Of a stretch of DNA of 51,839 bases, positions 1,101 to 18,660 are shown piece after piece. Position 1 is the first letter of the stretch; every line of letters starts with the position of its first letter. The stretch comes from Burkholderia sp. Bp8992 (GTDB lineage Bacteria; Pseudomonadota; Gammaproteobacteria; Burkholderiales; Burkholderiaceae), in NCBI RefSeq assembly GCF_003853705.1, contig NZ_QTQI01000041.1:1-51839 (forward strand). The letters run 5' to 3'. Under the pieces are notes generated by a model. It ran no database searches. It was given only the letters and a program-made list of their open reading frames with translations, and was not told the origin of the DNA. Both the position numbers and the translations under genes were made by a program.

Positions 1101-1134
1101 CCGTGGCGATCCGATTCGAATCGGATCGCCACGG
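1101..1134. repeat. Perfect 34-bp palindrome
   Basis: The sequence reads identically on both strands from CCGTGGCG at 1101 to CGCCACGG at 1134, centred on TTCGAA. It lies in the 92-bp gap between the long tniQ and the small antitoxin-like gene. As RNA it would form a very stable hairpin; on the plus strand it is followed by TTTATT. It could be an operator, an attenuator between the two tniQ genes, or a binding or recombination site. A GATTCGAA copy also occurs at 1078-1085. Confidence 0.9.
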
Positions 1135-1152
1135 TTTATTGAGAACACCGCT

Positions 1153-2121
1153 TCACACGGTCTGCACCACTTGGCCTCCTATTGCGTCGACCAATGCACG
1201 ATGGAGGAACGCGAACGGTGGCTCCGGCAACTCCGTGAACAAACGCATAGAGATGTGCTCAACGCTTCGGGCCGAACTCAGGATCGCCCCCGACCGAGGT
1301 CGGTATCGCCGTTCCGCGTCGACCAGTTCCTTGAATCCCCGAGGCCAGTCCGACATGATCCGTCCGATTTTTTGCATGCGCGGCGTCAGTTCGGAAATGG
1401 CCTTCGAGCGCAGCCCCTTGTCTGTCGACCCGCTCGTTGCACCACTGACACGATATAAAAACGAAAGCACACGCAGCAACTCCCCAAGGTCAAGCGCGGC
1501 GAAATCCGGTGGGACGCCTGGCGGACAGTCCGGCACATCATGCTCAAAACTCATGCGCCAGCGTCGATCGATGAGCCGAGTGATCATCAGATCGTCCGTC
1601 TTCGCGGGTTGACATGCAGCCGACCCGAGATCCGTCCCGCACTGACAACGCGCCACGCCCGGCCGCGTGGACGACACTTCGCGTCGACAACCCGGACAGC
1701 GATCGAGCAGCTGGACGCCGTGGACAGCACAGCACGTCGCGAATACGTAAGCATTCACACCCAGCACGTGTTGATGCTCAGCGATACACAGCGGACATAT
1801 GCGCTCGTTGGCGCCGACAAGGATTGCATCGGGTTCGACCCAGTGGCCATACAAGCTGATCTTCGCGTGCTTCGTCCCGCTACGGTCAATCGCGCCCACG
1901 GTCAACGGTGTCATCGCCCGGACCAATTTCGGGGAGAGCCGGCAAACACGGGCAAGCGCATCGACCTCCGAGGCAAAGCGCGGCCGAGCAGCAGCCACGC
2001 CGGCGCGGCGCAGGACCATCCCCGGTCCACCCAACCCGTTGATCTCGGCAACGCGATGCAGCAACGACGAAAGCGACTCTCCGCGATGCGGAGCAACGCC
2101 AAGGAGAAGAGGGGTCGTCAT
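1153..2121 (-). CDS. tniQ: TniQ-family target-selection protein
   Basis: This 322-residue protein begins with the TniQ domain (HRGESLSSLLHRVAEINGL, residues 12-30) and carries zinc-ligand motifs at C109/C112, C131/H134, C142/C145 and C159/C161. TniQ/TnsD proteins bind the target site or a guide complex and hand it to TnsC. The C-terminal 150 residues are helical and not assignable by eye. Its ATG overlaps the tnsC stop codon as ATGA, implying translational coupling. It is the longer of two TniQ proteins here, so it is the better candidate for attachment-site recognition. Confidence 0.88.
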   Translation of the reverse strand: MTTPLLLGVAPHRGESLSSLLHRVAEINGLGGPGMVLRRAGVAAARPRFASEVDALARVCRLSPKLVRAMTPLTVGAIDRSGTKHAKISLYGHWVEPDAILVGANERICPLCIAEHQHVLGVNAYVFATCCAVHGVQLLDRCPGCRREVSSTRPGVARCQCGTDLGSAACQPAKTDDLMITRLIDRRWRMSFEHDVPDCPPGVPPDFAALDLGELLRVLSFLYRVSGATSGSTDKGLRSKAISELTPRMQKIGRIMSDWPRGFKELVDAERRYRPRSGAILSSARSVEHISMRLFTELPEPPFAFLHRALVDAIGGQVVQTV

Positions 2122-3026
2122 TGCACGTCCTCCGCAAACGGTTCACCCGGTTGGTCAAGCGGAACGCCATTAAACTTCGAATCGAAGGGATCGCGAGAAG
2201 GCGGTGCATCCTTCCAGATATGAACGCGAAACGCCGCGGCAAAATCGTTCAGCGTGACACTTTTCCCACCGCGTCGCTCGGCAACCTGGTAAGCACCGTT
2301 CAACAACTTGCACATGTAGTCCACCAGTCCTGCAGTTGCGTAGTACAACTTCATCACGACACGCTTGTCGACAATATCGGTCATCGGCAATGGCATATCT
2401 TTGGCGAGCGCCTGCATCACGCCAATGAACGTTTTGGCGCCTTCGTTGGTGTTCACATTGAACGGACGCATCTCCGTCACGCGAGAAAACCGGCGCCGCA
2501 ATTGCCCATTGACCCGCAGCACACCCAGCAGCGACGGCAGCCCCGCGAGCACAACAGCAGCTGGGAGCCGGTCCAGCAGCACCTTCAACCAGTTCGCAAC
2601 CTGTCTCAGCGAACGGCGATCGCCCTCGACGAAGTGCTGAAACTCGTCGAGCATGATGATCTCCACGCCACAGCCGTGTACCAGTTTGACAATCTGCTCT
2701 GTCAGGCGCGCACTCGATTGACCAGCTTGCGCAATTTCACCCAAGGCAATCAACATAGCTTCAGCCAACGATCTGACAGTCGGTACTGCAGGCACGATGA
2801 CATAGAGAACCGGCACGTGCCGGCGCAACACCTCCTCTCGCACCGGGAATTGGGCACGATAGCATTCGAGCACGGTCGATTTTCCGGCTCCGGACGCCCC
2901 GATCGTCGCCAGACACCCTGCTTCACCGGATTCCCGCAGCCATTGATGGATCTCCTCGATGCTCTTGAGCGCAACAACGAAATCGGGATGTTCGACGATG
3001 CTTTTACGGACATTAAATCGTTTCAT
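2118..3026 (-). CDS. tnsC: TnsC/TniB-type AAA+ transposition regulator
   Basis: The 302-residue product has a Walker A motif GASGAGKST (residues 43-51) and a Walker B motif IIMLDEFQHF (about 123-132), in the arrangement seen in TniB/TnsC. These ATPases form filaments on DNA and link TniQ to the TnsA/TnsB transposase. Its length is close to TniB rather than the much longer Tn7 TnsC. The ATG at 3026 has AAGGAG eight bases upstream, and that site lies just after the tnsB stop. It overlaps the following tniQ by four bases. Confidence 0.92.
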   Translation of the reverse strand: MKRFNVRKSIVEHPDFVVALKSIEEIHQWLRESGEAGCLATIGASGAGKSTVLECYRAQFPVREEVLRRHVPVLYVIVPAVPTVRSLAEAMLIALGEIAQAGQSSARLTEQIVKLVHGCGVEIIMLDEFQHFVEGDRRSLRQVANWLKVLLDRLPAAVVLAGLPSLLGVLRVNGQLRRRFSRVTEMRPFNVNTNEGAKTFIGVMQALAKDMPLPMTDIVDKRVVMKLYYATAGLVDYMCKLLNGAYQVAERRGGKSVTLNDFAAAFRVHIWKDAPPSRDPFDSKFNGVPLDQPGEPFAEDVQ

Positions 3027-3036
3027 GATGATCTCC

Positions 3037-4986
3037 TTACCGTTCGGTACGCTTCGTAACTGAAAATTCAGGAACGCTGTCGAATCTGACGATCATGGGA
3101 TCCACTTGGTCCGGCTGGACGGAGTCGTCAACTGCGTTCCCGCCGGCGGTTCCAAGCAAAAGATCCTTGCTCGACTTCCCCTTGATCTGCGCAACCCATT
3201 TGCGCTTCTTGAGTTTCTGATCAAGCTCCGCCTTGGCAATGTCGTCTGCGAGACGGATACGCGCTTTTCGAAGCGAGACAGGGTTGATATCGATACTGCT
3301 GTCTCGCATGGCGCCGGTGACTTCGTTGTGCATCCATCTGGTCAAATCCTTCGTGTAATCTGGATCGGTGCAATCAACGCGAAGGTATTCCTTCTGCCTT
3401 GGGTCGTAGACGTAGACAAAGCTGGTCTGCTCGTTGAAATACCGAACCTTGACTTTTTCGTCGCCCGAGATGCTGTGACGAAGCAGTTGCAACGCACTGG
3501 AGTTGTACGACAGGTGATCAAACGTCACGCCACTGTTCGTGATCGGACGCATGATGGTGTCCGAGAACGCGACGGAAAGCTGATCGGGATCGGCCGGCAT
3601 GTAGATAGGGGTCAGCCGCGCACTTTCCCGCCATGCCTGAAACGGTGTCTTGCCCTTCAAGCCACGATGTGGCGCGTGCTGGTAACACTCCACAATCCAG
3701 CGCACGACAAACACCGTTAGCTGTTCGAGGGTCACACACGCAAGCTTCTCGGACGGGTACTCTCCACGATCTTTGGTATTCGACCAAGTCGTTCCCGGAA
3801 TCAAATGGAAGAGTTGTTCTGCTATCGTGCGCATAAACCGCTCCACACGGCCTTTGAACCATGGTGCACGGCTCGGGCAGTACGCGAGTGAAATCCCCAA
3901 CTCGTCGCAGCCAGCTCGTGTGGCGCCGCCGTGGAATTCCCACGCGTTGTCACCGAAGATCATCTCGGCTACACCTCGCGCCAACCATTCAAGATGCCCC
4001 AGGCCTAATCGGTTCAGTAAATCGCGCTTGCTGAGCATGGCCATTTGCATTGCCCATCCGACCTCCTCCTGACCAGGTGAGCGCGCCCCGATATGAAACC
4101 CCATCACCATGCGAGTGTGCGCGTCAATGATGAGCGTCAGTACGGGACGGACGATGACCATACGGGTGCGCTCACAGACGCACAGCAAGTTCACCGGCGT
4201 GTGGTCAATCTCCCACCGCTCGTTGAGTCGTTTTGTCTTGAGCCGACGGAACACCGGTCGATACTGCTTAAGTGCTTCGATGCGGCCCTCCCGGGCCGCG
4301 GTGACGAGATAGCTGTTCAGTTTCCCGACATGACGGTAAAGCGTCGCTCTACTAATCGTAGGTAACGGATTTTCCAGGTCACGTTCGTTATGAGCGTCAA
4401 TGGCATCCTCTACTTGATCGTACAATCTCGCCACGTTCAGTTTCTGGCCATTGAGATAGTGCGTTTCGATGACATCTTCCACCAGCGTGAGCAGAGGACC
4501 ATCGAGGATTTCGCGTCGTCCCTTGTTTTCATGGCGCGGCACCACGTCCATGGCATCACGTGACGGTTGGTAGCGTTTTCTCCACCGGCAGAAGGATCGA
4601 TAGGTTGGCGGTATCGTTGCACCGACCTCACACGCCACCCGGTTGATGACGGTCTCGACTTCGCGCACGCGCGAGCACTTCGCCTCCTCCACGGCTCTTA
4701 GGTAGACGAGTCGCGCACGCATCACGACAAGATCTTCTTCTTTGAAGGTGGTGACATCACGTCGAGCAACAACAATCGGTGACGCAGCCGTCTCACGTAG
4801 CGATTCGATACTGACGGACCATGTCCCATTACCGTGGCGTGCCCATATTTCAGTTTCGTGCAGGCGTATTGGCGAGCTGTAGTCGGAGCTGAGCTCGATT
4901 CGACCGTCGGGCAGCGCAGTCTGAACGCGCCAGACATACTCGCCCTCACGGAACTCGACGCCACGCTTAAGCAAAAATTTTTGCAT
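3037..4986 (-). CDS. tnsB: TnsB/Mu-type DDE transposase
   Basis: The 649-residue protein is a Mu-like integrase-core transposase. The catalytic triad is visible as D261 (WEIDHTPVN), D346 (FGDNAWEF) and E382 (WFKGRVERFMRTI). The N-terminal 250 residues hold the helix-rich end-binding part and the C-terminus a basic tail (KLKKRKW) that may contact TnsC. TnsB binds the transposon ends and performs 3' cleavage and strand transfer. It starts at an ATG preceded by GGAGG and overlaps tnsA by 20 bases. Confidence 0.94.
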   Translation of the reverse strand: MQKFLLKRGVEFREGEYVWRVQTALPDGRIELSSDYSSPIRLHETEIWARHGNGTWSVSIESLRETAASPIVVARRDVTTFKEEDLVVMRARLVYLRAVEEAKCSRVREVETVINRVACEVGATIPPTYRSFCRWRKRYQPSRDAMDVVPRHENKGRREILDGPLLTLVEDVIETHYLNGQKLNVARLYDQVEDAIDAHNERDLENPLPTISRATLYRHVGKLNSYLVTAAREGRIEALKQYRPVFRRLKTKRLNERWEIDHTPVNLLCVCERTRMVIVRPVLTLIIDAHTRMVMGFHIGARSPGQEEVGWAMQMAMLSKRDLLNRLGLGHLEWLARGVAEMIFGDNAWEFHGGATRAGCDELGISLAYCPSRAPWFKGRVERFMRTIAEQLFHLIPGTTWSNTKDRGEYPSEKLACVTLEQLTVFVVRWIVECYQHAPHRGLKGKTPFQAWRESARLTPIYMPADPDQLSVAFSDTIMRPITNSGVTFDHLSYNSSALQLLRHSISGDEKVKVRYFNEQTSFVYVYDPRQKEYLRVDCTDPDYTKDLTRWMHNEVTGAMRDSSIDINPVSLRKARIRLADDIAKAELDQKLKKRKWVAQIKGKSSKDLLLGTAGGNAVDDSVQPDQVDPMIVRFDSVPEFSVTKRTER

Positions 4987-5602
4987 GACGCACCTCCGAA
5001 GGAGCGACGTAAATGGCTGCGTCGGAGGTCAGCGGCACATCGAGATCGATACCCGCGGCGCCATTGGCGATCCAGGTCAACGCAACGTCGCGCGAACGGG
5101 CCAGATGCACGAGGTTTCGGAAAGTTTTCGGATACTTCTTTTCAACGAGCCACTGTGCTTCCCGGATCCGTTCGGGCGAAATTCGCCCCAGCCACGACCG
5201 CAAGAGCCGCAGAGTCTCGTGACGGGTGCCGGAGATGTAGGTACGTTCATCCCAAATGAAGAGGGCGTGTCCATGCTCCGCAAGGACGGCTCTCGCACGC
5301 GCCACGCGTGCCTGCACTGAAGGCTTCTGCAAATCCTTTGCTGGCTTGGCTTCGACGAAGACAGTCGAACTGTCGCGCCGCACAATCTCGTAATCCGGCG
5401 TGTACCGGAAAAGCTGGCCGGCCTCACGGAGAACAAATGTTCTATCTTGAGCGCTACGAAAGCGCAGTACCTCAGGGCTGAACTCGAGCAAGAGGGTCGT
5501 CGCCTCTTCCGCCAGGGAATACCAAGGCATCGAGCAAGCGTTTTTGACAGAGGGCGTGAAACCTCGAAAATTTCCGCCACTGCGGGTATCGTACGAAGGC
5601 AT
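4967..5602 (-). CDS. tnsA: TnsA-type endonuclease subunit of the heteromeric transposase
   Basis: The 211-residue product shows the TnsA nuclease core: an acidic segment LAEEATTLLLEFSPEV (residues 30-45), TPDY with D70, and VEAK with E84 and K86. TnsA makes the 5' cuts that allow cut-and-paste transposition together with TnsB. An upstream in-frame start would give 265 residues, but the ATG at 5602 has AGGAGA at ideal spacing and starts a TnsA-like N-terminus, so it is preferred. It is the first gene of the tnsABC-tniQ operon. Confidence 0.9.
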   Translation of the reverse strand: MPSYDTRSGGNFRGFTPSVKNACSMPWYSLAEEATTLLLEFSPEVLRFRSAQDRTFVLREAGQLFRYTPDYEIVRRDSSTVFVEAKPAKDLQKPSVQARVARARAVLAEHGHALFIWDERTYISGTRHETLRLLRSWLGRISPERIREAQWLVEKKYPKTFRNLVHLARSRDVALTWIANGAAGIDLDVPLTSDAAIYVAPSEVRHAKIFA

Positions 5603-5784
5603 GATGATGTCTCCTGCGCCCTTTCGGGCACGTGGATGTGGGGACGCGAGTCCGAATGGACGAGCGCCGGCCGCGCGGATGTCATTTCCACGCAACGAGG
5701 AGACGAGTTGGACCTTGACGCCGAAGAGGAGGGAGCTATACTGAAGTTGTTCAGGCCTCAGCATTGCCCCCGCTCATCCGGGTC

Positions 5785-6927: not shown

Positions 6928-9900
6928 ATGAATTTAAGAGAACTTGTCGCTGATCGAAGGACCTCGATTGAGAGCGGCGCAGTAGACGCGAGGCTCTTTT
7001 CACGTAATCTAAGACACCTCAGAGGCTACAGTTTCTGGGACGGTCAGGAGGGAACACCTCGCCTTTGGGAACATCAACAAGCGGCCATTGCAACTGTGGT
7101 TGCATACCTTTGTGGAGAAAAGACGATCCCTGAGCATCCTGAACACCAGGAGGCGGCACTCCTCAAGTTGCCTACGGGCACCGGCAAGTCGGGGATCATT
7201 GCCGTGATTTCTCGCTGCTTACCGCGTGTCCGACGCGTTCTTGTGCTCACACCCCGTACCGCGCTGACAGAGCAGCTCATGTCGGACATCTGCTATCGAT
7301 TCTGGAAATATCTGGGCTATGAGGTAAACGACACCGATCCTTTTGTCGCAAACGCTGAAACCATGGGCAAAGAGTTAGAGGGCGCATTTGTTGAACATTT
7401 ACTGCCCATCAACGTCGACATGATTCTGCGAAGCCTTCGGGACGGCGGCACAGATAGGGTGATTTTGGTCGGTACCCATCAAGCACTGGGCGATATTCGA
7501 AAGCGAGCGTTCAATCCCGCCGCTGACGATTCCGCAAACTGCCAAACCCTCCTGGATCACATTGGCGAGAACTTCGACCTAGTAATCGTTGACGAAGGCC
7601 ACTACGAGCCCGCGATCGCGTGGTCACGTGGAGTACGGGACTTCAATCTCGCAACAGTGCTCCTGAGTGCCACGCCGTATCGCAATGACTACAAGTCATT
7701 CCGCGTGCGCGGGCGATATCTCTTTAATCTTCCGTATCAACAGGCAGTCGATGACCGGATTATCCGCTCAGCTGAAGTTATCGTTCCCGAAGTGGATCCG
7801 GTAGATGGGCATGAACCAGCCATTGCTCAATTCGTCGATATATTGCATCGAGAACTGCCGGCTCGACTGACGAGATCGGCACGCTGGTTCCGCGATGACG
7901 AGCAACCAAAGGTGATGGTACGCGGAGACGATCTCGAGACTCTCTACCTCCTCCAGTCGGAGGTAGACCGCGTTTTCGACACGCAGTCCGTTCTCATTCA
8001 TGATCGGGCGAAAAGTACGCCGGATAATCCGCTCCGCTTCACAAGCGTTTCCGCTGCGCGACGCGCACAACCAACCGCCACATTCTGGATACATCAGAAC
8101 AAACTTATGGAGGGAATTGATGATCCAACATTCGTTGCCGTTGGCATTTTTGACCTCATGAGCAATGCCAGACAGCTGGTACAACAGATCGGACGGACAA
8201 CACGCTACGCAAGAGGCGGCCATCGCGAACGCCAAACTGCATGGATCCTTGGCTCACCCGCGAACGCTTTCCGTATTCGCGATGCGTGGGAGCGCTACAA
8301 GCGGTACGAGGACTATGCGGCACGAAATACCGGCTACATGGTCTCAAACGAAGTCACGTTACCTGATCGTCTGTTGGAGTATATGGCCGAGTACCAGTAC
8401 ATCGATGGGGAATTCCGAGGTCGCTTTGAGTTCGAGCGGCCACTGGCCGCGAGTGATGTCCAACTTCCACGAACTGCGACGATTCTACGGACTGTTGAAC
8501 CTCTGCCCAGCATTCACAATCTAGGTATCCTGATTGAGGACGCCATTGCGGACCGGGACCGGTTCAAAATTGTGCCAATTGCAGACCTGCCGGAGAACAC
8601 GATTGGGTTTAGCTACTATGCGTGGCGCAATTCGCCCTATCTCGTCGATCGCTTCTTCTCGGAATGGACACTCGGGATATTCGTCGCAGTTCAACAGGAT
8701 GAGTTCGTGTGCATGCACGACACAGAGGGACTGGTCGTCGATGTGGCGAACCTGAAACTGCGACGCGCCTCACGGGCTGTCCTGGAAAAGGCATTCCCCG
8801 AGCAAGACGGTGAGGATACTTCCCGCGTTTCGCGCATGTCCTTCTCCTCCCTCGACATGTCTCAGCACGCGATTCGAGGCATGGCGCTACGTACGCGCTC
8901 CTTCGCCGATGTCTTCACCGACCTTCTCGATCCCTCCCTCGTACCAGCGACAGCTGCCGGATTTGTCAACGGTAACGCACGCTACGTCGGCTTTGCACGA
9001 GCGCGACTAAGGGATGCATCGGAATCCCATGTTCCAATTTCCGATTACATTGCCTGGACTTCCGAGATCATCGCGGAGCTACGCGCCCCAAATCGCGCAC
9101 GTAATCATATCTTTGGTCGTTATGCGGTTGTCGTTGAAGACGTCAATGCCGCCGACGCACAACCCGTTTCGATTCTTCTGGACCCGTCTCTGGATGAGAT
9201 ACGTGACGACGATCAGGGCGTCACGGCCTTTGTGCTCCACGAGGACGTCGACTATTTCGACCTTTGCTCTGACGTCGATCCCGACAACGGAGCGTTTATT
9301 ATCACCATTGGAGATGAAGAGGTTCCATGTGCAGTGGAATATATTCCTGCAACGGGCAAATACCATCTTTCCAGCGATCGGCTGAATCAGAAATTCCCGC
9401 CAGCGGAACGAGGTGAGCGACGCCAACGTCAAACACTCACTCAGCGCTTGAACCAGCGCCAAGCGTTTCGGATTCTTACACGACGCACCGGAGTGGTTTA
9501 TTCGGAAGGTAGTTTTTATGAACCTCGGATGCGCTGGTGCCTCGAGGACGGCAGCAAGCCGGTTCTCGACTATGTCTACGAATCCCTCGCACTCGAACCG
9601 GTAGACTCCGAAAAGGGAGAAGAATATTTTCCAGTAGATCGGCGAGATTGGTATCGGAAATCCGTGTTCGGCCTGTTCTCAGCAACCTGTGATGGTCAAC
9701 TCGGCGCAAACGATATCGAAGAGGACGATCTGACCAGAGCAATTGATTCAATACCAATCTGGTTATGCGACGATGATAATCGGGAAGTGGCGGACTTTAT
9801 CGGACTCGATCTCACTACGAAGAGAATCGTTTTCGTCCATGCCAAGATCGGAGATCAAGGTCCTCGTGGTCGAGGATTCAATGTCGATGGCCTGCAAATC

Positions 9901-10278
9901 GTTGGTCGTCAGGCACTTGCCAGCCTAGGTTTCATATCTCGGGGGCAGCCGTCGCCGATCTGGACTCCAGAGCGCTGGGAAAATGACGTCCAGGCGAATA
10001 CGGTAACTCTAACGGGGCGCGACCGTTTGTTTCGCGGAGTGGCGGGAATGACGATCGATCAATTGAATGATGCACTTCACTACGCCAGCAGCAATCCATC
10101 GTTCGATAGGGAAATCTGGATCGTTGGTTCAAAGATGGCGCGACGTCAGGCGCTCGCCGATGGTCTTGAGCGGCAGCCACAAGACAATCGATTGCGGCAA
10201 TTTCTGATGCATTGGGACGCAATGCAAACGGCCTGCGCAAGAGCGAATACTCGACTGAAGTTGTTTTGTTCAAGATGA
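6928..10278 (+). CDS. Large SF2 DEAD/DEAH-type helicase with possible nuclease-like C-terminus
   Basis: This 1116-residue protein has SF2 helicase motifs: PTGTGKS (residues 82-88), VDEGH (221-225), SATP (247-250) and QQIGRTTRYARG (419-430). The central 500 residues are not recognised. Near the C-terminus the pattern ADFIGLD (D961) followed by IVFVHAK (H971, K973) resembles the hydrophobic-strand and lysine layout of a degenerate PD-(D/E)XK nuclease; that reading is tentative. No Shine-Dalgarno precedes the ATG at 6928. It converges on a methylase/GGDEF operon and is probably its effector or restriction partner. Type III-like Res subunits are an alternative relative. Confidence 0.85.
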   Translation: MNLRELVADRRTSIESGAVDARLFSRNLRHLRGYSFWDGQEGTPRLWEHQQAAIATVVAYLCGEKTIPEHPEHQEAALLKLPTGTGKSGIIAVISRCLPRVRRVLVLTPRTALTEQLMSDICYRFWKYLGYEVNDTDPFVANAETMGKELEGAFVEHLLPINVDMILRSLRDGGTDRVILVGTHQALGDIRKRAFNPAADDSANCQTLLDHIGENFDLVIVDEGHYEPAIAWSRGVRDFNLATVLLSATPYRNDYKSFRVRGRYLFNLPYQQAVDDRIIRSAEVIVPEVDPVDGHEPAIAQFVDILHRELPARLTRSARWFRDDEQPKVMVRGDDLETLYLLQSEVDRVFDTQSVLIHDRAKSTPDNPLRFTSVSAARRAQPTATFWIHQNKLMEGIDDPTFVAVGIFDLMSNARQLVQQIGRTTRYARGGHRERQTAWILGSPANAFRIRDAWERYKRYEDYAARNTGYMVSNEVTLPDRLLEYMAEYQYIDGEFRGRFEFERPLAASDVQLPRTATILRTVEPLPSIHNLGILIEDAIADRDRFKIVPIADLPENTIGFSYYAWRNSPYLVDRFFSEWTLGIFVAVQQDEFVCMHDTEGLVVDVANLKLRRASRAVLEKAFPEQDGEDTSRVSRMSFSSLDMSQHAIRGMALRTRSFADVFTDLLDPSLVPATAAGFVNGNARYVGFARARLRDASESHVPISDYIAWTSEIIAELRAPNRARNHIFGRYAVVVEDVNAADAQPVSILLDPSLDEIRDDDQGVTAFVLHEDVDYFDLCSDVDPDNGAFIITIGDEEVPCAVEYIPATGKYHLSSDRLNQKFPPAERGERRQRQTLTQRLNQRQAFRILTRRTGVVYSEGSFYEPRMRWCLEDGSKPVLDYVYESLALEPVDSEKGEEYFPVDRRDWYRKSVFGLFSATCDGQLGANDIEEDDLTRAIDSIPIWLCDDDNREVADFIGLDLTTKRIVFVHAKIGDQGPRGRGFNVDGLQIVGRQALASLGFISRGQPSPIWTPERWENDVQANTVTLTGRDRLFRGVAGMTIDQLNDALHYASSNPSFDREIWIVGSKMARRQALADGLERQPQDNRLRQFLMHWDAMQTACARANTRLKLFCSR

Positions 10279-10493: not shown

Positions 10494-12221
10494 TTACGGG
10501 CGAGGCCGCAGGTAAATTGCATATTCCGTCACCGGCTTGGCGTTACGCTTTCCTTGCGCTTTATATACGTGATTCATCTGGAAAATTTCGACGCTATGAG
10601 CAACGTCGTTCAGATGCTTGAGCGTCCCCTTTATAGAAGCCGTGCCGGAATTGGAATAACTCCACAGGCAAGACCACCCATTCGCAAGGCAAGCGTGTAA
10701 AACCTTAGCGATTTCCCGCTCGATTAATTCTGGACGGCGTTCGCTGAATGACGATGCAAATCGAACTTTGCTACCGCGCTGAGGCAGCCGCCCCTTTCCG
10801 GACACGGAATGCGGTTGGTATTGAACGATCGCTTCCAGCACGTGGTAGTAACGACTGTACTCGTCTCGGGTATAAGGTGGATCGACGTACACGCACACTG
10901 GTCGCCGACCTACATTCGGTTTCAGAGCCTGCAGCGCAACCTCCCAAGGTCCAGGCATCACTTCGACAGGATACTTAACGTGCTCACTCTCCTCCGCTAA
11001 TCTCGTTAGACGAACGAAGAATTCGTGTGACACTGACAATGATCGCTGCTTTAAGGCCTCTGACAAGTCGCCACGTCGCTTACCATCTGGAGCGATATCA
11101 AGTTTGGGTTGCGCAAAGTGCCCTCCGTATGTATACGCACAGGCACTCGCTGCGCATACAAGAGCACCAAGCGCCCACCTCCGATCACGCTCCTCAGGCA
11201 AATCGTCGATAGCTTGACGCAGGCAATCTAGTTCCGCCCCTTGACGCTCGCCGAAGTAAAGTCCTGCGTAAAGGTGCGACAGAAGACGACCATTGCGCCA
11301 AGCGTCTGTCACAGCGTCGATGCCGCCCCGGTGCTCCTGCTCCCAGGCAAGCGTGCGACGCAGAAGGCTCGCGGCAACTGAGTCCTGAACCGTTGGTGAC
11401 AGCTCCGAATTCAACAACCGGTCCTCTTCATCAATCCGCTCGCGATGCCCATCGGAAAGCGACTCGTAGCGAGATCTCGCACCCCGTATCACAGTCTCCG
11501 CAATCACAGTTGCGGTTGAGAGGGTCATTCCTCCGCCTTGAACCAGACCAAGGTATCTACAAAAAATCTGTGCATCCGATGCAATGGTCGGGTAGTGACG
11601 CGAAAAAGCGCCCGCCATGGCACCGGAGCCGCACATTAAGTCCACTAACGTGGTTCCGTCTGATGCAACTGCATCCACTACATCCAGTATTTGGCCCGCT
11701 AATGCAGCTTTTGAGCCCATGTAATTCGCAGATCTGGCAAATAGCCCGCTACGACTTGCAGCGAGCTGTTGGTGCCGCAACCTGCTCTGGGCCGCGCGTT
11801 CCATCAGCGACACATCCAAGGTGTACGCCCGATACTCGCGCAAATCCAGCTCTTGCCATGAGGAGACTTGCTTACAGAGATTACCCGTCTTACTGTCGAC
11901 CCAAAGCGGCAAAAGCTGCATCCACAACTCTTCCGCCGAAGATCGGACTGCGGTGGCTCCCGCCGTCACACATGTATGGGAACCGAGAGGAGTAACGATT
12001 ACTGGAGCAAAAAGGTCGTCAGTGAGCTGCGGTTCGGTGCCCCAATCGAACGCAGAGGACGTGAGGTTAGACAGCCGCTCGAACTGACCTTGAGATACCC
12101 ACATCTGATTGTCCGGTCCCGTGATTGTCGGAAGCATTCCAATCCGCTTCCACTGTGCGTGCGTTGGATCGGACTCGTCAAACAATCGAATTAGCGGCAC
12201 GGTATCAGTTATCTTTATCAA
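10494..12221 (-). CDS. D12-class adenine DNA methyltransferase with N-terminal extension
   Basis: The 575-residue product has a D12-class core: NYMGSKAALAGQILDVV (from residue 166), SAM-binding LMCGSGAMAGA (195-205) and catalytic DPPY (447-450) followed by TRDEYSRYYHVLEA. The first 165 residues are extra and unassigned. The large insert between motif I and DPPY probably holds target recognition. Its DPPY neighbourhood (RYYH) matches that of the 343-residue methylase in the same operon, so the two form a subfamily. It is the last gene of the operon; its ATG overlaps the previous stop as ATGA. Confidence 0.85.
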   Translation of the reverse strand: MIKITDTVPLIRLFDESDPTHAQWKRIGMLPTITGPDNQMWVSQGQFERLSNLTSSAFDWGTEPQLTDDLFAPVIVTPLGSHTCVTAGATAVRSSAEELWMQLLPLWVDSKTGNLCKQVSSWQELDLREYRAYTLDVSLMERAAQSRLRHQQLAASRSGLFARSANYMGSKAALAGQILDVVDAVASDGTTLVDLMCGSGAMAGAFSRHYPTIASDAQIFCRYLGLVQGGGMTLSTATVIAETVIRGARSRYESLSDGHRERIDEEDRLLNSELSPTVQDSVAASLLRRTLAWEQEHRGGIDAVTDAWRNGRLLSHLYAGLYFGERQGAELDCLRQAIDDLPEERDRRWALGALVCAASACAYTYGGHFAQPKLDIAPDGKRRGDLSEALKQRSLSVSHEFFVRLTRLAEESEHVKYPVEVMPGPWEVALQALKPNVGRRPVCVYVDPPYTRDEYSRYYHVLEAIVQYQPHSVSGKGRLPQRGSKVRFASSFSERRPELIEREIAKVLHACLANGWSCLWSYSNSGTASIKGTLKHLNDVAHSVEIFQMNHVYKAQGKRNAKPVTEYAIYLRPRP

Positions 12222-13015
12222 GTTTCCACCGCAATGACAAGGCCAAAGGGAGAGTCATGCGGATCATTTGCCAAGCGCAGCCCAGTGCCTGGAAGCCGCT
12301 CCATGAATAGAGAGGAATTCATTCCCTTGTGAAAATTCATGACCCAAACACCCCCTGGCACTAAATGGCGTGCGACGGATGTCAGCGTCTGATCCATATC
12401 GCACGCGTAGTGCATCACATATGCACTCAATACGACTTGAATATCTTGCTTTCCGGAATGAAATTCGTCTTCAGTCATGACAGGAAGACCGGCATTGTGC
12501 GCCGCCAGTCGGACCTCTTCACCAATATCGAAGCCTCTAATCGTTGGCACCTGCACTGGCAACGCTGTCCCCAAGATAGTCCCTGGTCCGCATCCGACGT
12601 CAAGCAACGTCGCGCATGAGGAACGGTTCCTATGTTCTTGTGCGTGATCAAACAGGAACTCATAACACGCTTTGTTTCTCGCCGGGTCAATCTCAAGTTC
12701 GTAGCGATCTCCTAGCCAATTGAAGAACTCTGCAACCAGATGACTGCGTGCGATATCGTCCGACACTGGGGCCATGTAAGTATGCTCGAAAACACGTACC
12801 CAGCCAGAGCGTCCGTTACGCCACACGGCACCGGGCGCCGGACAGGTGCAGACTAAAACAGCCAAGCTTGGGGAGCGATACGTCACCGTGACATTCGGCT
12901 CACGCAGCAACGTACCAATCAACGCGTCATCGGCTGGAAGAATCAGGCGATCAGCATTAGTCACTGGACAAATCCACAATTCGTTTAGCAATTCGACGAT
13001 GGACACCGTCGACAC
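12218..13015 (-). CDS. Class I SAM methyltransferase with Trm112-like N-terminus
   Basis: The 265-residue product has the SAM-binding motif LLDVGCGPGT (137-146) and a Methyltransf_11/25-type core (VLSAYVMHYACDMDQTL, LVPGGVWVMNFHKG). The N-terminus ELLNELWICPVTNADRLIL resembles a Trm112-type domain with most zinc cysteines lost. The substrate cannot be read from the sequence; it lacks the DPPY/NPPY motif of amino-methylating DNA enzymes, so a small molecule, RNA or protein substrate is more likely. It overlaps the GGDEF gene by 59 bases. Confidence 0.75.
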   Translation of the reverse strand: MSTVSIVELLNELWICPVTNADRLILPADDALIGTLLREPNVTVTYRSPSLAVLVCTCPAPGAVWRNGRSGWVRVFEHTYMAPVSDDIARSHLVAEFFNWLGDRYELEIDPARNKACYEFLFDHAQEHRNRSSCATLLDVGCGPGTILGTALPVQVPTIRGFDIGEEVRLAAHNAGLPVMTEDEFHSGKQDIQVVLSAYVMHYACDMDQTLTSVARHLVPGGVWVMNFHKGMNSSLFMERLPGTGLRLANDPHDSPFGLVIAVET

Positions 13016-15524
13016 GCATGTGCAGACTCAAAGCGACATACGTGAGTTGCCCCATTCGAAGTTGGGTTGGCGTTGGCGCACCCGTAGGCACGCCCTCCGC
13101 CAAGAGCGATTGGGCGAGCTGAATCGAACCGTACAAACTGTAGGGCAAGCCAATGAAGGCTTCCACAGTGCGCCATACAAACACCCAGTCAACAATATTC
13201 TCCTCGGCCTCATCGCCGACTCTGGGTGAGGCCCATACCGAAACAAGACCTTCCGGCGAAGGTGAACCATCAGGCCTGGGGGCATGTGGCACAACCAGCA
13301 ACGCGCGACGCGTAGAACGATGTTGAGCACCCGTGCTGTAGCAGGATTCAAGCTCCCGTCTAAACGCCTCTACCTGCCCACCTTCCGCCAAGATTTTCCC
13401 AATACGACTCTGAGGTCCGATCAACACCTCGGAGGCATAGCGTCTCAGATCCCCGCCCTCGTCACGAAGATAGGCGGGGATCGGGTCTTGCTGAGGAGCC
13501 TCGAGCACGAGCTTAAACGCGATCAGTTCTTTCAGTGTCTGAAATGCATCATCTGCCGACCGTCGAATCGCTGCCCGGCGAAGTACGTCTATGATGACCG
13601 GATACGCCTGTGCCGCGGTACGGCATCGAACTCCATCGATCGACTCGAGCGATTGCGATTCCAGCATCTTGCGCGCCAAGACGTCCAATGTCGGATTAGC
13701 TTCTCCTGCTTGATAAGACTCCTCCGCGATCTCCACTGGAGCATTCTCGTAGAGTGACTCGACCAGTTCCTCCGCAGTCTTCACGATTTTGAGATTCTGC
13801 GTCAGTACAGGCCTCAGAACGCGAACCTCGTCGGACGTGATATCAGCAAGTGAAGCGATTTCATCAATAGACCAATCGATTTCCTGCTTCAAACGACGAA
13901 CTGTTTCGCTACTATCACATGCTCTTCCCCACCCGAAGATGTACAAGGCACCACCACCGCGTGCTGCCGACTGACATACTTGTGCTACCGCCACCTGCCA
14001 GAAATCCGGCAGACCCCCGCCTGAATTCGGCCGGTCGTCGATCACAACGACATGAGAAAGTAAGTCTCGCGGCAATACATCTCCACCCTCAAAGGTGGGT
14101 CGGTCTGACAGACCGACCTGCAATCCAATCAAGGGTATTGATCCGCGCTCGCGTTCACGAGTTAAGATTTCTACCTGTTCGACGCTCTCACAACCATCAA
14201 GGCTGCCACCCCACTTCACATTGCCGTCAACCAATACTTGTGCGCGAGAGCCGTCAGACGTAAATGCAACGCGCAAATCGTTGGGCAGCGTCTGATTGGT
14301 AAAATATTGAGCACGCAGAACTCCGCTTGCAACTGCAAGTGCCAATGCAATTTGAGGCACCGCTTCCGCGGGTTGCTCCTTCAGCAAGCTACCCATTGAG
14401 CATGTCGCGGTCGTCTCGATATCAAGCCACCTACGCAGATGTTCTACTGCGTCGTCCAGAGTCGTCGCACCATCCGCCTTGTGATTCTGCGCGGCCAGCT
14501 CCACCATCCCCAATCTCGGATCAGGGAATGTAGGACGGGACAGGCACGCTCGGCGTCGAACCAATACAGTGCCAAAGCGAGCAAAATTACGTGCAGTCGT
14601 GCTTACACCTGGAACGCCAACGACGCTGGCAATAGAAAGTCGTCCACGACGCTTAGCCTTGTCACGATTCTCGCTGTTCGACTCCTTGACCGGTGCAGTG
14701 TCTTCACCGTCGATCACCGGTGATTTTGTCGCCTCTTCTGCCTGACCGATTGTCTGCTCGATATGCTCGAACGTCACCTCGTCATGCAGGAACTGCAGCC
14801 CAAGAGTCAAGTCGATATTATGAGAGCGACCGTCATCACCTTGAAATGCGTGTTGTTGGATTCGCTGGCGGAGATCGTAGAGCGCCTTCATCATGGGAAG
14901 CAGGCCCACGTCAGGCAAGATCAGGTAGTACTCGTCACCGCTCGGGTGAAATGGCAACCCTCCATGACGCAAGCAAAGATCGTGCAGTTCACGGTTGACC
15001 ATGCGAATTGCTTCATCGCCTTTATCATGGCCTGCTTGGTCGTTCAGGTTTTTGAACTTGTCCAGATCAGCAAACAGAATCGCGATGGATCCCTTGTCGG
15101 GTGACAATTCCCTCAAGCGCTCCACTGACTTCGGCAGACGAACGCGCACAGACTCCCGTTTCCAAGCCAGGCCTCCGGCAGGTCGCATATCCTCGCCCCA
15201 CAGTGCCTTCGCTAGATCCTTCAGTCGTGGAAGGATCTCTTGCTCTTCCGCCGTCTCAGGAAAGCGATCACCGAATACCGTGAACTTCACATCGGCACTT
15301 AGCGCACCCTTCTGCAATACATGGGAAGGCACATCGTCTCCAATCGCCCCCCAAACGTATTTCTGGTCGAGTTGTTCGATTTGCACCCTAAGCCGGCGTG
15401 CAAACATTGATCCCGCAATCTCATCAAGGCGATGCGTCACCTCCTGAGGCGAAAGAAACTGCCAGTTAGTCTCCTCGATCAGCTGCTCTAGGCCGGCCTT
15501 CGCTTCACTGCTAGTCATTCCCAT
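12957..15524 (-). CDS. GGDEF-type nucleotide cyclase-like protein with large unknown C-terminal region
   Basis: The 855-residue protein carries a GGDEF-family domain at about residues 145-265: FADLDKFKNLND (151-162) supplies the first metal-binding Asp, HDKGDEAI follows, and the signature loop is SGDEY (195-199) instead of GGDEF. No RxxD inhibitory site precedes it. There are no membrane segments. Residues 1-140 and about 300-855 match nothing I recognise; the latter contains a Rossmann-like stretch (LLSHVVVIDDRP, GGALYIFGWGRA). GGDEF domains make cyclic dinucleotides and are related to the Cas10/mCpol palm, so a signalling role in defence is plausible but inferred. It overlaps the HAD gene by 14 bases. 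Confidence 0.8.
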   Translation of the reverse strand: MGMTSSEAKAGLEQLIEETNWQFLSPQEVTHRLDEIAGSMFARRLRVQIEQLDQKYVWGAIGDDVPSHVLQKGALSADVKFTVFGDRFPETAEEQEILPRLKDLAKALWGEDMRPAGGLAWKRESVRVRLPKSVERLRELSPDKGSIAILFADLDKFKNLNDQAGHDKGDEAIRMVNRELHDLCLRHGGLPFHPSGDEYYLILPDVGLLPMMKALYDLRQRIQQHAFQGDDGRSHNIDLTLGLQFLHDEVTFEHIEQTIGQAEEATKSPVIDGEDTAPVKESNSENRDKAKRRGRLSIASVVGVPGVSTTARNFARFGTVLVRRRACLSRPTFPDPRLGMVELAAQNHKADGATTLDDAVEHLRRWLDIETTATCSMGSLLKEQPAEAVPQIALALAVASGVLRAQYFTNQTLPNDLRVAFTSDGSRAQVLVDGNVKWGGSLDGCESVEQVEILTRERERGSIPLIGLQVGLSDRPTFEGGDVLPRDLLSHVVVIDDRPNSGGGLPDFWQVAVAQVCQSAARGGGALYIFGWGRACDSSETVRRLKQEIDWSIDEIASLADITSDEVRVLRPVLTQNLKIVKTAEELVESLYENAPVEIAEESYQAGEANPTLDVLARKMLESQSLESIDGVRCRTAAQAYPVIIDVLRRAAIRRSADDAFQTLKELIAFKLVLEAPQQDPIPAYLRDEGGDLRRYASEVLIGPQSRIGKILAEGGQVEAFRRELESCYSTGAQHRSTRRALLVVPHAPRPDGSPSPEGLVSVWASPRVGDEAEENIVDWVFVWRTVEAFIGLPYSLYGSIQLAQSLLAEGVPTGAPTPTQLRMGQLTYVALSLHMRVDGVHRRIAKRIVDLSSD

Positions 15525-16458
15525 GTCGCGTTATTTTCCCCGTTAATAATCTGCGAGCCTGGGTGACCAGTTGAAGTGCTTCGATCACACCGTTCGTAGA
15601 TGGATATGTTGTTTGAAAACGACTAGACGATTGCGCTTGAGTAGACGCATTCGCGACACAAACGCTCACACCAACAGCCTGAAGCAGTTCGACATCGTTG
15701 TCGTTATCGCCTATTGCCATGACATGACTTGGAGGAATCCGCAAATAACCCAGGAGGGACTCCAAGCCTACCGCCTTGCTCGACCCGAAAGGCCGCACCT
15801 CAATATAGCGTGATCCACTGACTGTCGGCGAAATGCCCGGAATGTGCTCGAGCGCAGCCGCGAGTTGCGTCCGCACGGTAGCGTCCTCCGACCAAAGCAA
15901 TGCCGCAACGCAATTGGAGTCTAACGGCACTGACTCCATCAGAGATACCGGAAGCCCGTTGAATTCCCGCTCGGGGGGATTACCTTGCCCAACGAATGTT
16001 GCCCATTCGCCGTCCAACCGGCCGGCGAGATCCGCATGCAACCAATACAGTAGGGCACTCCCCCCTACGCTTGTTACCACGGCCGTCAGCGCGTCAATCG
16101 ACTCAGTACTCAGAACGCGTTGCGCCAACAGTACACCAGCGGCCGTCATCACGACGCTACCGTTGTAGAGAATGACCGGAGTGTCTTTATGTCGAGATAC
16201 TGCTTCGATTGCTGGCCGAGCCCCGGCAAGCGCCCGGCCAGTAGCAAGCGTCAGCGGAACGCCACGGGATTTCAGACGATTCACTAAGTGAGATCGCTTA
16301 CCCCACTCGGTTTTGGTCGGCAGGTCATCGGAACTTGTTAGCAGCGTGCCGTCCAGGTCGAGCACGACGAGTTCGACCTGAGCAAAGGGCTTGAGGTCCT
16401 GAACATCAGACAGGGCGTTTGGTAGGAGAGCCGGTCGGCCGATCGACGATGAACACAT
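15511..16458 (-). CDS. Cof-type HAD-IIB phosphatase
   Basis: The 315-residue product has HAD motif I DLDGTLL with D34 and D36, a motif II region (LTLATGR) and motif IV GDNDND (250-255), with a C2-type cap between them, typical of Cof/sugar-phosphate phosphatases. HAD-IIB enzymes dephosphorylate small phosphorylated metabolites in the cytoplasm. The ATG at 16458 follows an AGG; an upstream ATG at 16515 would enlarge the overlap with the previous gene. Inside an operon with a GGDEF protein it might degrade or shape a nucleotide signal, which is inference. Confidence 0.82.
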   Translation of the reverse strand: MCSSSIGRPALLPNALSDVQDLKPFAQVELVVLDLDGTLLTSSDDLPTKTEWGKRSHLVNRLKSRGVPLTLATGRALAGARPAIEAVSRHKDTPVILYNGSVVMTAAGVLLAQRVLSTESIDALTAVVTSVGGSALLYWLHADLAGRLDGEWATFVGQGNPPEREFNGLPVSLMESVPLDSNCVAALLWSEDATVRTQLAAALEHIPGISPTVSGSRYIEVRPFGSSKAVGLESLLGYLRIPPSHVMAIGDNDNDVELLQAVGVSVCVANASTQAQSSSRFQTTYPSTNGVIEALQLVTQARRLLTGKITRHGND

Positions 16459-17437
16459 GATGCCTAGAGCGCCGTTTCCGGCTTGTTGTGGTGTAGCCCA
16501 ATGCGTTGACCTCATATTCTGTCATCGTACCCCGCGCACTAAGACAGGCTCTGAGATCGGGCAAAGGGATAAAAGCGTCCTCGCAATACTGCACGACAAC
16601 GCGCTTCCAGCCAACTTCACCCAACAATTTCTGCAGGTAATCGAGTCTCATTGCTTGCCGGAACTGAGTACTCTCCACACCAATTTTTTGGGGTAGCCCT
16701 GCGAGGCTGTCTGGGTTTGTTCGGGGCCGGCTCAGCTGCGCTAAAGATTCTGGCAGATGATAGTAACGGGCATAGTCTCGATCGTTGTACGGGGGATCGA
16801 GGTAAAGCAGGTCGAAGTTGCGGCCTCGTAAGGTTTCCAACGCATCGCCACGGAGGGCCTGTCCAGGGGGAAAACCCGACGGTATCGGCAAGAATGAAAG
16901 GGTGAAGGGGCGCAAAGCCTTGCGATCCCACTGTTTGAGGTAGGCATAGTAGGTGCCGGCCGTGTTGGCGCACGCATCCATCGCGTCAACAAATGAGGAG
17001 ACTAGGTGTGCGCGTTCCGAGGTCGATAGCCACCCGTTCTCATTCCATCGGCACATCTCGTCCCAAACACCTGCAATGCGAATCGCGTTTTCCACGGTGA
17101 AAAACATTCTCTGTCTGGCAAACTCGTTGACGATCCATGACCGTGTGTTGCGCTGTTGAACCAAATGGTCAAGGACTGCTTCTCGCGAGCCGAGATTCAA
17201 ATTGCGACGGACATGCAAATATCTTGGCACACTCGAGCAAACCACCCGGGTATGTTGGAAAGCATGCGGCATCGACAAAATATCGCAAGTAGTAACGCGA
17301 ACATTGCGCCGCCGCAGTGCAGCACCAATAGTTCCAAGCCCCCCGAAAGCATCGGCCGCCGTCTGGATTGGCATTCCATCAAGGGCCAGACCGATTACCG
17401 CCTCGAGCGTCGAGGATTTCGAGCCAAAATAGCGCAC
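16406..17437 (-). CDS. D12-class adenine DNA methyltransferase
   Basis: The 343-residue product begins with RYFGSKSSTLEAVIGL, has SAM-binding FGGLGTIG (31-38) and catalytic DPPY (214-217) followed by NDRDYARYYHLPE. This is the D12 class that methylates adenine N6, as in Dam and type II enzymes. Its DPPY context is shared with the 575-residue methylase at the operon's far end. It starts 14 bases after the Dam-like gene and overlaps the HAD gene by about 53 bases. The recognition sequence is unknown. Confidence 0.87.
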   Translation of the reverse strand: MRYFGSKSSTLEAVIGLALDGMPIQTAADAFGGLGTIGAALRRRNVRVTTCDILSMPHAFQHTRVVCSSVPRYLHVRRNLNLGSREAVLDHLVQQRNTRSWIVNEFARQRMFFTVENAIRIAGVWDEMCRWNENGWLSTSERAHLVSSFVDAMDACANTAGTYYAYLKQWDRKALRPFTLSFLPIPSGFPPGQALRGDALETLRGRNFDLLYLDPPYNDRDYARYYHLPESLAQLSRPRTNPDSLAGLPQKIGVESTQFRQAMRLDYLQKLLGEVGWKRVVVQYCEDAFIPLPDLRACLSARGTMTEYEVNALGYTTTSRKRRSRHHVFIVDRPTGSPTKRPV

Positions 17438-17451
17438 AGAATCGCCCCTCT

Positions 17452-18150
17452 CTATGATGACGCGTACGGCTCAACGTGTACGCCAATCTGATCAGCAAAT
17501 GTGTCTCGCATCCAGTTCAATAGCAACGCACGCTCCACATCCGGCAGACCAACTATTTTTGCGCGGAGCCGGTCCTGCTTACGCCGAATACGTTGTCGAT
17601 CACGGTACGATTTGCCCACCCATTGCAGATCTGCAGGAACGGTTGGCGGATCGTAATTGAGCCAAACGCGTTCCTCTCGCGCGCAGCCGTGGCTCCCCAT
17701 GTTGAATGAGAGCTCACGCCAATCACGAAGACGCTCGCTGTAGAGATCACTACCATACCCCGAGATCATTACGCGGCATGGAACGTTGACGAGCACATCA
17801 AGCAAAGCTTCATGATCCAACGACGTGTACTCGTGACGGTAGATAGTCGGGCGGCGACGCGTAGCAGGTAGATACGGAGGGTCCAAATAGAGGAACTCGG
17901 TTCCTTTAAACTCAAAAGTCCGCAAAAACTCTAACGCGTCATGTTGAACAAGGCGCAAGTTCGGAACTTCGTCGCCGCGCCACTGGGCCATCACCTCCGG
18001 ATCCGACTCAATGCCGATGCTTACGGATGCGGGAAGCTTGTTCCGTAGCACGGCTCCCATGCCGAGATACGCTTCGATGTACGTCTCGTGATCCGGAATG
18101 AGATTGATCAAGCGACGAAATAATTGGCCTTTGCCACCGGGATATGTCAT
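17452..18150 (-). CDS. Dam-like D12-class adenine DNA methyltransferase
   Basis: The 232-residue product starts with TYPGGKGQLFRRLI, a SAM-binding motif of D12 enzymes, and has DPPY at residues 90-93 followed by a short target region. The size and compactness resemble orphan Dam-like or phage methylases. It is the first gene of the six-gene operon. The ATG at 18150 has no Shine-Dalgarno, and a TTGACA box ends 30 bases upstream, so the mRNA may be leaderless. Confidence 0.86.
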   Translation of the reverse strand: MTYPGGKGQLFRRLINLIPDHETYIEAYLGMGAVLRNKLPASVSIGIESDPEVMAQWRGDEVPNLRLVQHDALEFLRTFEFKGTEFLYLDPPYLPATRRRPTIYRHEYTSLDHEALLDVLVNVPCRVMISGYGSDLYSERLRDWRELSFNMGSHGCAREERVWLNYDPPTVPADLQWVGKSYRDRQRIRRKQDRLRAKIVGLPDVERALLLNWMRDTFADQIGVHVEPYASS

Positions 18151-18473: not shown

Positions 18474-18660
18474 AATTCCAACAATGCAAAATAAAAAGTC
18501 AATTTATTTGCATGTTTTTCAAAATCAAGGTTCAATAAGCCTTATTTTCAGATTTACGCGTCAAATATTCAAAGACAACATATTGAGACTGCGGACATCT
18601 TTTCTGAGAGACAACAACAGTTAGCCAGGCGAGCGAACCTCACCTCCTCCCCCGTACCGG
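18474..18660. other. AT-rich right boundary of the island
   Basis: This stretch is very AT-rich for the genome, then gives way to GC-rich sequence after about 18625. On the minus strand it begins with repeated TGTTGTC (18610-18616 and 18576-18582) and contains TTGTC-N3-CAGAAAA (18600-18614), a motif also found at 6317-6331 in the same orientation. Several TTGA-led repeats follow. It looks like a transposon end with transposase-binding repeats, ending in ACA at 18613, 18616 or 18619. No gene is visible between 18474 and 18750. Confidence 0.4.

What the first reader, a model, noticed from the sequence alone, without database searches (positions are those of the whole stretch)
10494..18150. Six-gene methylase-HAD-GGDEF operon: candidate new defence or modification system
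Seen: six minus-strand genes, five junctions overlapping or within 14 bases, encoding three D12 adenine methylases, a SAM methyltransferase with a Trm112-like start, a Cof-type HAD phosphatase and a GGDEF-type protein, next to a convergent 1116-residue helicase, all on a low-GC island with Tn7-like transposase genes. Known: methylases plus a helicase suggest self/non-self marking, and GGDEF domains make nucleotide signals. Inferred: a modification-linked second-messenger system. I cannot match the set to BREX, DISARM, Druantia, Hachiman, Dnd/Ssp, CBASS or Pycsar.
Basis: partly seen in the sequence, partly recalled or inferred. Interest (0 to 1): 0.82.

Follow-up and report, generated by a model that had tools for sequence, protein, structure and literature searches.

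The report
Five-gene GGDEF–methylase immune-like operon
A rare, mobile set of five bacterial genes, kept in the same order across several bacterial phyla, joins an enzyme of the signal-nucleotide-making kind to DNA-marking enzymes and in some bacteria sits beside cell-killing proteins known from virus defence, so it looks like an undescribed immune system.

Summary
The helicase and the Dam-like methylase are found only in the window. CBASS-type effector genes adjoin 6 of 14 loci; by chance about 2e-9 (patatins) and 5e-6 (SLATT). The three clostridial patatin loci carry the serine that marks cGAMP-making GGDEF enzymes. The GGDEF protein ends in a thymidylate-synthase-like fold without the catalytic cysteine. 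Best reading: a CBASS-like defence with a GGDEF-type synthase. The methylases' role is open, 8 of 14 loci, the window included, show no recognised effector, and nothing has been tested at the bench. Seven paper searches found no description.

The parts
16406..17437 (-). D12-A: DNA adenine methylase family protein (343 aa), core gene 1
   Evidence: Pfam MethyltransfD12 2.5e-5; PADLOC type II methylase PDLC03287 1.8e-38 over its residues 1-324; DPPYN motif invariant in the 13 aligned members
15511..16458 (-). HAD-IIB (Cof-type) phosphatase, core gene 2; ORF is open from 16515, likely ATG at 16458
   Evidence: Hydrolase_3 1.3e-39; DxDGT, TGR, K and GDN.ND invariant in 13 aligned members; start inferred from homologues
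12957..15524 (-). GGDEFX: 855-aa protein, core gene 3; GGDEF domain plus middle domain plus thymidylate-synthase-like domain
14727..15104 (-). GGDEF domain of GGDEFX (residues 141-266); SGDEY loop, DLD, N and GD retained
   Evidence: Pfam GGDEF 3.3e-15; matched in 12 of 12 members; motif table
13713..14639 (-). Middle domain of GGDEFX (residues 296-604) with invariant DxRPxxGG(G/C)LPDFW at residues 496-509
   Evidence: separate model pLDDT 85.5, pTM 0.86; no PDB or BFVD match at E <= 0.001
12960..13712 (-). C-terminal thymidylate-synthase-like domain (residues 605-855), no catalytic cysteine at the expected place
   Evidence: Foldseek of the whole model to MilA 5jnh 1.5e-7, prob 1.00, and T4 dCMP hydroxymethylase 8.1e-7; motif table; sequence searches negative
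12218..12964 (-). SMT: small SAM methyltransferase, core gene 4; ORF open from 13015, likely GTG at 12964
   Evidence: Methyltransf_23 3.2e-7; fused to D12-B in L028
10494..12221 (-). D12-B: second DNA adenine methylase family protein with an N-terminal extension (575 aa), core gene 5
   Evidence: MethyltransfD12 4.6e-10; alignment
17452..18150 (-). Dam-like D12 methylase (232 aa); co-directional, 14 bases upstream of D12-A, not part of the conserved set
   Evidence: Pfam MethyltransfD12 5.7e-9; no counterpart at the other loci
6928..10278 (+). Convergent ResIII/DEAD helicase (1116 aa); separate neighbour, not part of the conserved set
   Evidence: PADLOC candidate PDC-S71, 1e-16; no match among called ORFs of the other loci
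67..5764 (-). Tn7-like transposition genes (two TniQ, TniB, Mu-type transposase, TnsA-like)
18548..18572 (.). Approximate right boundary of the island
   Evidence: DNA homology to same-genus genomes starts here; GC rises to the right

Best explanation
The five genes form one mobile module that works like CBASS but with a GGDEF-family synthase. Shown: conserved order at 14 loci, GGDEF and HAD active-site residues kept, CBASS-type effectors adjoining 6 loci, a cysteine-less thymidylate-synthase-like fold at the end of the synthase. Inferred: infection is sensed by GGDEFX, perhaps because its TS-like domain binds a deoxynucleotide or folate whose level phages change; the GGDEF domain then makes a cyclic dinucleotide (c-di-GMP-type where the specificity residue is Asp, 3',3'-cGAMP-type in the clostridial clade where it is Ser); a patatin phospholipase, a SLATT membrane protein or, in loci such as the window, an unrecognised effector then stops or kills the cell. 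The two D12 methylases, perhaps one per strand of an asymmetric site, the small methyltransferase and the HAD phosphatase would mark DNA or adjust nucleotides so that the system stays silent without phage; this last step is the weakest.
For: Order D12A-HAD-GGDEFX-SMT-D12B, one strand, at 14 loci, with SMT-D12B fusion in L028. Distance matrices of the five genes correlate (r 0.70-0.88; 0 of 2000 permutations in each of 10 pairs, 12 loci). Patatin directly upstream on the same strand in L026, L027, L028, L029 (PADLOC CBASS Effector PDLC00758, 1.6e-87 to 5.4e-94), SLATT directly upstream in L025 and convergent downstream in L021. In 11 operon genomes PDLC00758 has 7 hits, 4 beside the operon; PDLC00712 has 2 hits, both beside it (chance 1.8e-9 and 5.2e-6 under random placement). 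None of 30 flank proteins scanned hit a CD-NTase model. Hypr-type Ser in L026, L027, L029, aligned to the Geobacter Hypr structure 6d9m; PMC6456294 (passages) names that Ser as the signature of cGAMP-making GGDEF enzymes and says natural Ser/Thr forms have GGDE[F/Y] (here SGDEF, SGDEF, TGDEF). In V. cholerae CBASS 3'3'-cGAMP activates the phospholipase CapV and folates inhibit the synthase DncV (PMC10653837, passages).
Against: 8 of 14 loci, the window included, have no recognised effector; in L020 (TetR-like gene to ribE-like gene) there is little room for one. The three Ser loci are one clade, so the Ser-patatin match may be a single event; the fourth patatin locus, L028, has Asp. TS-like is seen by fold only: Pfam, a profile search of PDB sequences and a profile comparison with one ThyA all failed. 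The rest of GGDEFX and SMT give no direct sign of a phage trigger. CBASS effector models do not prove the ligand. No assay.
Confidence: 0.55

Rival explanations
1. Epigenetic or restriction-modification-like module: the two D12 methylases mark both strands of an asymmetric site and the other three genes are the attack arm or regulators acting on unmarked DNA without a diffusible signal.
For: Two distinct D12 methylases kept at 14 loci; D12-A and D12-B match the same PADLOC type II methylase profile of 646 positions, D12-A over its first half.
Against: No nuclease domain found in the five proteins (Pfam); D12-B has DAPY in place of DPPY in 5 of 12 aligned members and in L029; does not explain adjacent CBASS-type effectors.
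Confidence: 0.15
2. Nucleotide or DNA hypermodification pathway: the TS-like domain, HAD phosphatase and small methyltransferase make or remove a modified nucleotide, which the D12-like proteins use or protect.
For: Nearest folds of the C-terminal domain are CMP/dCMP hydroxymethylases; HAD-IIB active site intact; SMT resembles small-molecule methyltransferases.
Against: The residues at the catalytic-cysteine place are P-x-G-L in 12 of 12, so TS-type chemistry is unlikely; no kinase, transferase or polymerase in the set; does not explain patatin and SLATT neighbours.
Confidence: 0.12
3. Guard or decoy logic as in Panoptes: GGDEFX makes a steady signal that holds an effector off, and loss of the signal during infection releases it.
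For: Rare, mobile, paired with 2TM-type and patatin effectors; Panoptes uses a related palm-domain synthase and a 2TM effector (PMC12657218, passages); Cas10 palm2 model weakly matches 4 of 12 GGDEFX (best 7.7e-5).
Against: Three extra conserved enzymes have no place in that scheme; 8 of 14 loci lack a recognised effector to hold off.
Confidence: 0.1
4. Not defence: a c-di-GMP or related regulator carried by mobile elements for their own upkeep or host lifestyle.
For: Canonical Asp specificity residue in the window; 8 of 14 loci without recognised effector; on transposon island, plasmid and phage contig.
Against: Effector adjacency; extreme rarity (0 of 398 phylum genomes with a 2-row profile; 0 of 65 genus genomes; 1 of 397, the known one); no EAL or PilZ partner among the proteins scanned.
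Confidence: 0.08

Closest known systems
CBASS (type II V. cholerae DncV-CapV)
   Same: Nucleotide synthase in an operon with a patatin phospholipase or SLATT-type 2TM effector; folate link of DncV parallels a TS-like domain here (PMC10653837 passages)
   Different: Synthase is GGDEF, not CD-NTase; two D12 methylases, HAD and SMT are core; more than half of the loci show no known effector
Panoptes (OptS mCpol / OptE)
   Same: Palm-domain synthase of the GGDEF/Cas10 superfamily paired with effectors (PMC12657218 passages)
   Different: Five core genes; GGDEFX is a true GGDEF match with two further domains; effector not a fixed partner
Hypr GGDEF (GacA, Geobacter)
   Same: Ser at the base-reading position in L026, L027, L029
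   Different: Window has Asp; different partner domains; GacA regulates metal respiration
Type II D12 methylases (two-domain types such as M.FokI, recalled)
   Same: Two D12 methylases together
   Different: Two genes, no nuclease, fixed partners HAD, GGDEFX, SMT
MilA / T4 dCMP hydroxymethylase / thymidylate synthase
   Same: Predicted fold of the last ~250 residues
   Different: No detectable sequence similarity; cysteine place occupied by P-x-G-L

Membership tests
CBASS | CD-NTase (cGAS/DncV-like) synthase | tested here: not met
   Core proteins match no CD-NTase; none of 30 flank proteins scanned by PADLOC did; not every flank ORF was scanned
CBASS | CBASS effector in the operon | tested here: inconclusive
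   Patatin or SLATT beside 6 of 14 loci; none recognised in the window
CBASS | Cyclic nucleotide made on infection activates the effector | not testable with these tools
   No biochemistry available
Panoptes | mCpol synthase plus S-2TM-beta effector, two genes | tested here: not met
   GGDEF matched in 12 of 12, Cas10 palm2 only weakly in 4 of 12; five-gene core
Type III CRISPR signalling | Cas10 with CRISPR array and CARF effector | tested here: inconclusive
   No Cas10 family hit for the window protein; arrays were not searched for specifically
Pycsar | PycC uridylate/cytidylate cyclase | tested here: not met
   No PADLOC hit for GGDEFX
Restriction-modification (type II) | Methylase with cognate endonuclease | tested here: not met
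   Two methylases but no nuclease domain in the five core proteins
BREX / DISARM / Druantia / Hachiman / Dnd | Signature proteins in PADLOC | tested here: not met
   Only generic type II methylase, mad2, PD-Lambda-5_B and helicase models matched, none as a whole system
GGDEF diguanylate cyclase | GGDEF domain with catalytic residues | tested here: met
   Pfam 3.3e-15; D153, D155, N161, G196, D197, E198 invariant in 12 of 12
Hypr GGDEF | Ser/Thr at GacA position 348 | tested here: not met
   Asp in the window; Ser only in L026, L027, L029
Thymidylate synthase superfamily | Fold | tested here: met
   Foldseek 1.5e-7 to MilA, prob 1.00, on a model region of middling confidence
Thymidylate synthase superfamily | Catalytic Cys | tested here: not met
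   P-x-G-L at the place in 12 of 12, placed by motif recall and fold, not by a sequence alignment

The most novel reading that the evidence does not exclude
A new immune system in which a GGDEF cyclase fused to a catalytically dead thymidylate-synthase-like domain reads the cell's deoxynucleotide or folate state, two DNA methylases set the self background, and the product (c-di-GMP-type or, in Clostridia, cGAMP) fires exchangeable membrane-damaging effectors: immunity that grew out of the c-di-GMP machinery and not out of cGAS-like enzymes.
Probability: 0.35. Interest if true: 0.92.

Novelty: new variant of a known kind. Interest (0 to 1): 0.8.

Why it matters
If true, GGDEF enzymes, the commonest second-messenger synthases of bacteria, were recruited into a stand-alone immune system, with a sensor domain built from a dead nucleotide-metabolism enzyme. 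It would give a testable answer to how such systems sense infection and would link DNA methylation to nucleotide-signal immunity. The five-gene profile set made here is enough to find and test more members.

Tried and rejected
Rejected: (1) Trm112-like start of SMT. (2) Helicase and Dam-like gene as core parts. (3) My own first idea that the DDRPxxGGGLP motif of the middle domain is a phosphoribosyltransferase loop: the separate model matched nothing at E <= 0.001 in PDB or BFVD; best hits were P450 reductases at low TM-score. (4) TS similarity by sequence: no Pfam match, hhalign to one ThyA Prob 0.3, PDB profile search best hit VPS28 at 0.0092, taken as chance. (5) Transposon ends by repeat search: no clear pair. 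(6) The 149-aa ORF of L001 as the N-terminal part of its GGDEFX: best match 28 aa, E 0.019, undecided. (7) More members: 200-genome first search with the full protein found only ordinary GGDEF proteins; phage records only phage G's GGDEF region and no match; plasmids only L001 beyond GGDEF-only hits; four viral scans gave one operon contig, met again as L039 and L040, plus L041 with a HAD-only stretch not followed up. (0 of 398 with D12-B) and one search had no positive control; A12 rang in 11 of 11 known genomes. Two of 13 loci (L030, L031) are plain GGDEF proteins and were dropped from all counts.
Full report
What is there. The window's left 18.55 kb is a lower-GC island (0.51-0.60 against 0.62-0.73) with Tn7-like transposition genes; its right edge is at about 18548-18572, where DNA homology to other genomes of one genus begins. 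All junctions overlap or are at most 14 bases apart. The Trm112 feature is an effect of reading the ORF from a too early start: the likely GTG at 12964 overlaps the GGDEF stop by 8 bases, as in the nearest relative L019, and leaves the cysteine outside.

The unit is five genes. A plasmid of Bradyrhizobium japonicum USDA 123 (L001), one phage contig (L018) and 11 of 13 loci of one genome-contig scan (L019-L029; L030 and L031 are plain GGDEF proteins) carry D12A-HAD-GGDEFX-SMT-D12B in this order on one strand. With the window that is 14 loci: named hosts are Bradyrhizobium, Lysobacter, Herbaspirillum, Pseudomonas, Undibacterium, Caenimonas (Pseudomonadota), a Lentisphaerae MAG, two Bacteroidota MAGs and three Clostridia. 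L001 is interrupted by IS1380 within GGDEFX and its D12B is in two ORFs; L029 is in pieces; L027 ends inside D12B, of which 334 residues are present (202 bits); L019 has 1130 bases between D12A and HAD; L028 has SMT and D12B in one ORF of 839 aa. Pairwise distances of the five genes correlate (r 0.70-0.88, 0 of 2000 permutations in each of the ten comparisons, 12 loci); this shows co-inheritance but does not separate it from a shared host history. The helicase and the Dam-like gene had no match among the called ORFs elsewhere.

It is rare: 0 of 398 genomes of the phylum (2-row profile without positive control), 0 of 65 of the genus, and of 397 of the family of L029's host only that host. A12 finds all 11 known genomes, so the last two are informative.

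Effectors. All-against-all comparison showed a gene shared by L026, L027, L028 and L029 directly upstream of D12A on the same strand (4-base overlap in L026, gaps of 12, 26 and 247 bases in the others, by the coordinates). It is a patatin (Pfam 4.8e-29 and 1.2e-19 for the two tested) and all four match PADLOC's CBASS phospholipase effector PDLC00758 at 1.6e-87 to 5.4e-94; the GxSxG and DGG motifs (recalled as the catalytic dyad) are in the printed sequences. L025 has a SLATT protein directly upstream (Pfam SLATT_4 1.3e-9; PADLOC 2TM effector 1.8e-12), and L021 a relative of it (37% identity) convergent just downstream (PADLOC 1.4e-9, no Pfam match). In the 11 operon genomes the patatin model has 7 hits, 4 of them here, and the SLATT model PDLC00712 has 2, both here; with random placement this has chances of about 1.8e-9 and 5.2e-6. 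The four patatin loci are not four independent events. No CD-NTase model matched any of the 30 flank proteins given to PADLOC, a part of all flank ORFs. In L022 a metallo-beta-lactamase protein and in L023 a membrane-bound alpha/beta hydrolase lie convergent downstream; whether they are effectors is open, and I count neither. Eight of 14 loci, the window included, have no recognised effector.

The synthase. GGDEFX has a true GGDEF domain (12 of 12 members) with D153, D155, N161, G196, D197 and E198 invariant in 12. The residue that reads the base is Asp in window, L001, L018, L020-L023, L025 and L028, Asn in L019 and L024, Ser in L026, L027 and L029. In the HMMER alignment the Ser column falls on the Ser of 6d9m, 26 residues before the Asp of GGDEF, which fits Ser348 and Asp374 of the paper; there Ser is the signature of cGAMP-making Hypr enzymes, found naturally only with GGDE[F/Y] (PMC6456294, passages), and L026, L027 and L029 have SGDEF, SGDEF and TGDEF. 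All three have the CapV-like patatin, and V. cholerae CapV is activated by 3'3'-cGAMP (PMC10653837, passages). The Fisher value of 0.014 (13 loci, L001 left out) must be discounted because the three are one clade, and L028 has a patatin with Asp.

The last 250 residues. Before any fold search I saw a likeness to thymidylate synthase motifs (recalled; note). The AlphaFold model (pLDDT 77.7, lower in this part) then hit, besides GGDEF structures, the TS-superfamily hydroxymethylases MilA (1.5e-7, prob 1.00, TM 0.48 by target), T4 dCMP hydroxymethylase (8.1e-7) and phage AfhB (TM 0.67 by target). TRR, WRTVE and SLH are invariant, where TS binds phosphate and sugar (recalled), but the cysteine place reads P-x-G-L in 12 of 12. 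Sequence methods find no TS link, so this rests on fold and motif. A sensor of a nucleotide or folate is my inference; the precedent is folate inhibition of DncV. The middle domain is confidently modelled (pLDDT 85.5) and has a nearly invariant DxRPxxGGGLPDFW (one Gly is Cys in L024), but matched nothing at E <= 0.001.

The other three. HAD: all catalytic motifs invariant in 13 members, nearest solved relatives Cof-type phosphatases. D12-A: DPPY invariant in 13. D12-B: DPPY in 7 and DAPY in 5 of 12 aligned members, DAPY also in L029; the split follows the two main clades of the tree, with L001's place unsure. SMT: generic class I methyltransferase. Their joint role is not settled by anything I ran.

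Literature. Seven searches for the combination listed no paper that by title and abstract describes such a system; only open-licence PMC papers are held and no preprints. I saw passages of three papers and listings of the rest.

Verdict. A real, conserved, mobile five-gene system, in print unknown to me, most likely a nucleotide-signal defence that works like CBASS without being CBASS. The window's copy is intact at ORF level and belongs to a clade in which 1 of 6 members (L021) has a recognised effector nearby.

Noticed in passing
6928-10278: 1116-aa ResIII/DEAD helicase whose C-terminal part matches PADLOC candidate PDC-S71 (1e-16); probably a separate defence-like cargo gene.
   Followed up: partly
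17452-18150: Short Dam-like D12 methylase placed at the head of the operon in the window only.
   Followed up: partly
L023:17484-18458: AbiEi-like protein about 2.4 kb downstream of the operon (PADLOC 1.6e-14).
   Followed up: no
L001:7148-8485: IS1380-family transposase gene annotated inside the interrupted GGDEF gene of the Bradyrhizobium plasmid, so this copy is broken.
   Followed up: partly
L022:7364-7759 and L023:7684-8052: Related small HTH-like proteins (28% identity) directly upstream of D12-A in both loci; perhaps regulators. No Pfam match for the L022 one.
   Followed up: no
L029:6072-6614: Fragment matching PADLOC mad2 of MADS (8.4e-30), about 0.7 kb before the patatin gene.
   Followed up: no
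L041:2325-2537: HAD-only stretch on a 73.9-kb viral contig, neighbours not looked at.
   Followed up: no
L022:14888-16246: Convergent metallo-beta-lactamase protein matching PADLOC LmuA, RTasMBL and Avs1a models (1.1e-12 to 4.3e-6); possible effector.
   Followed up: partly
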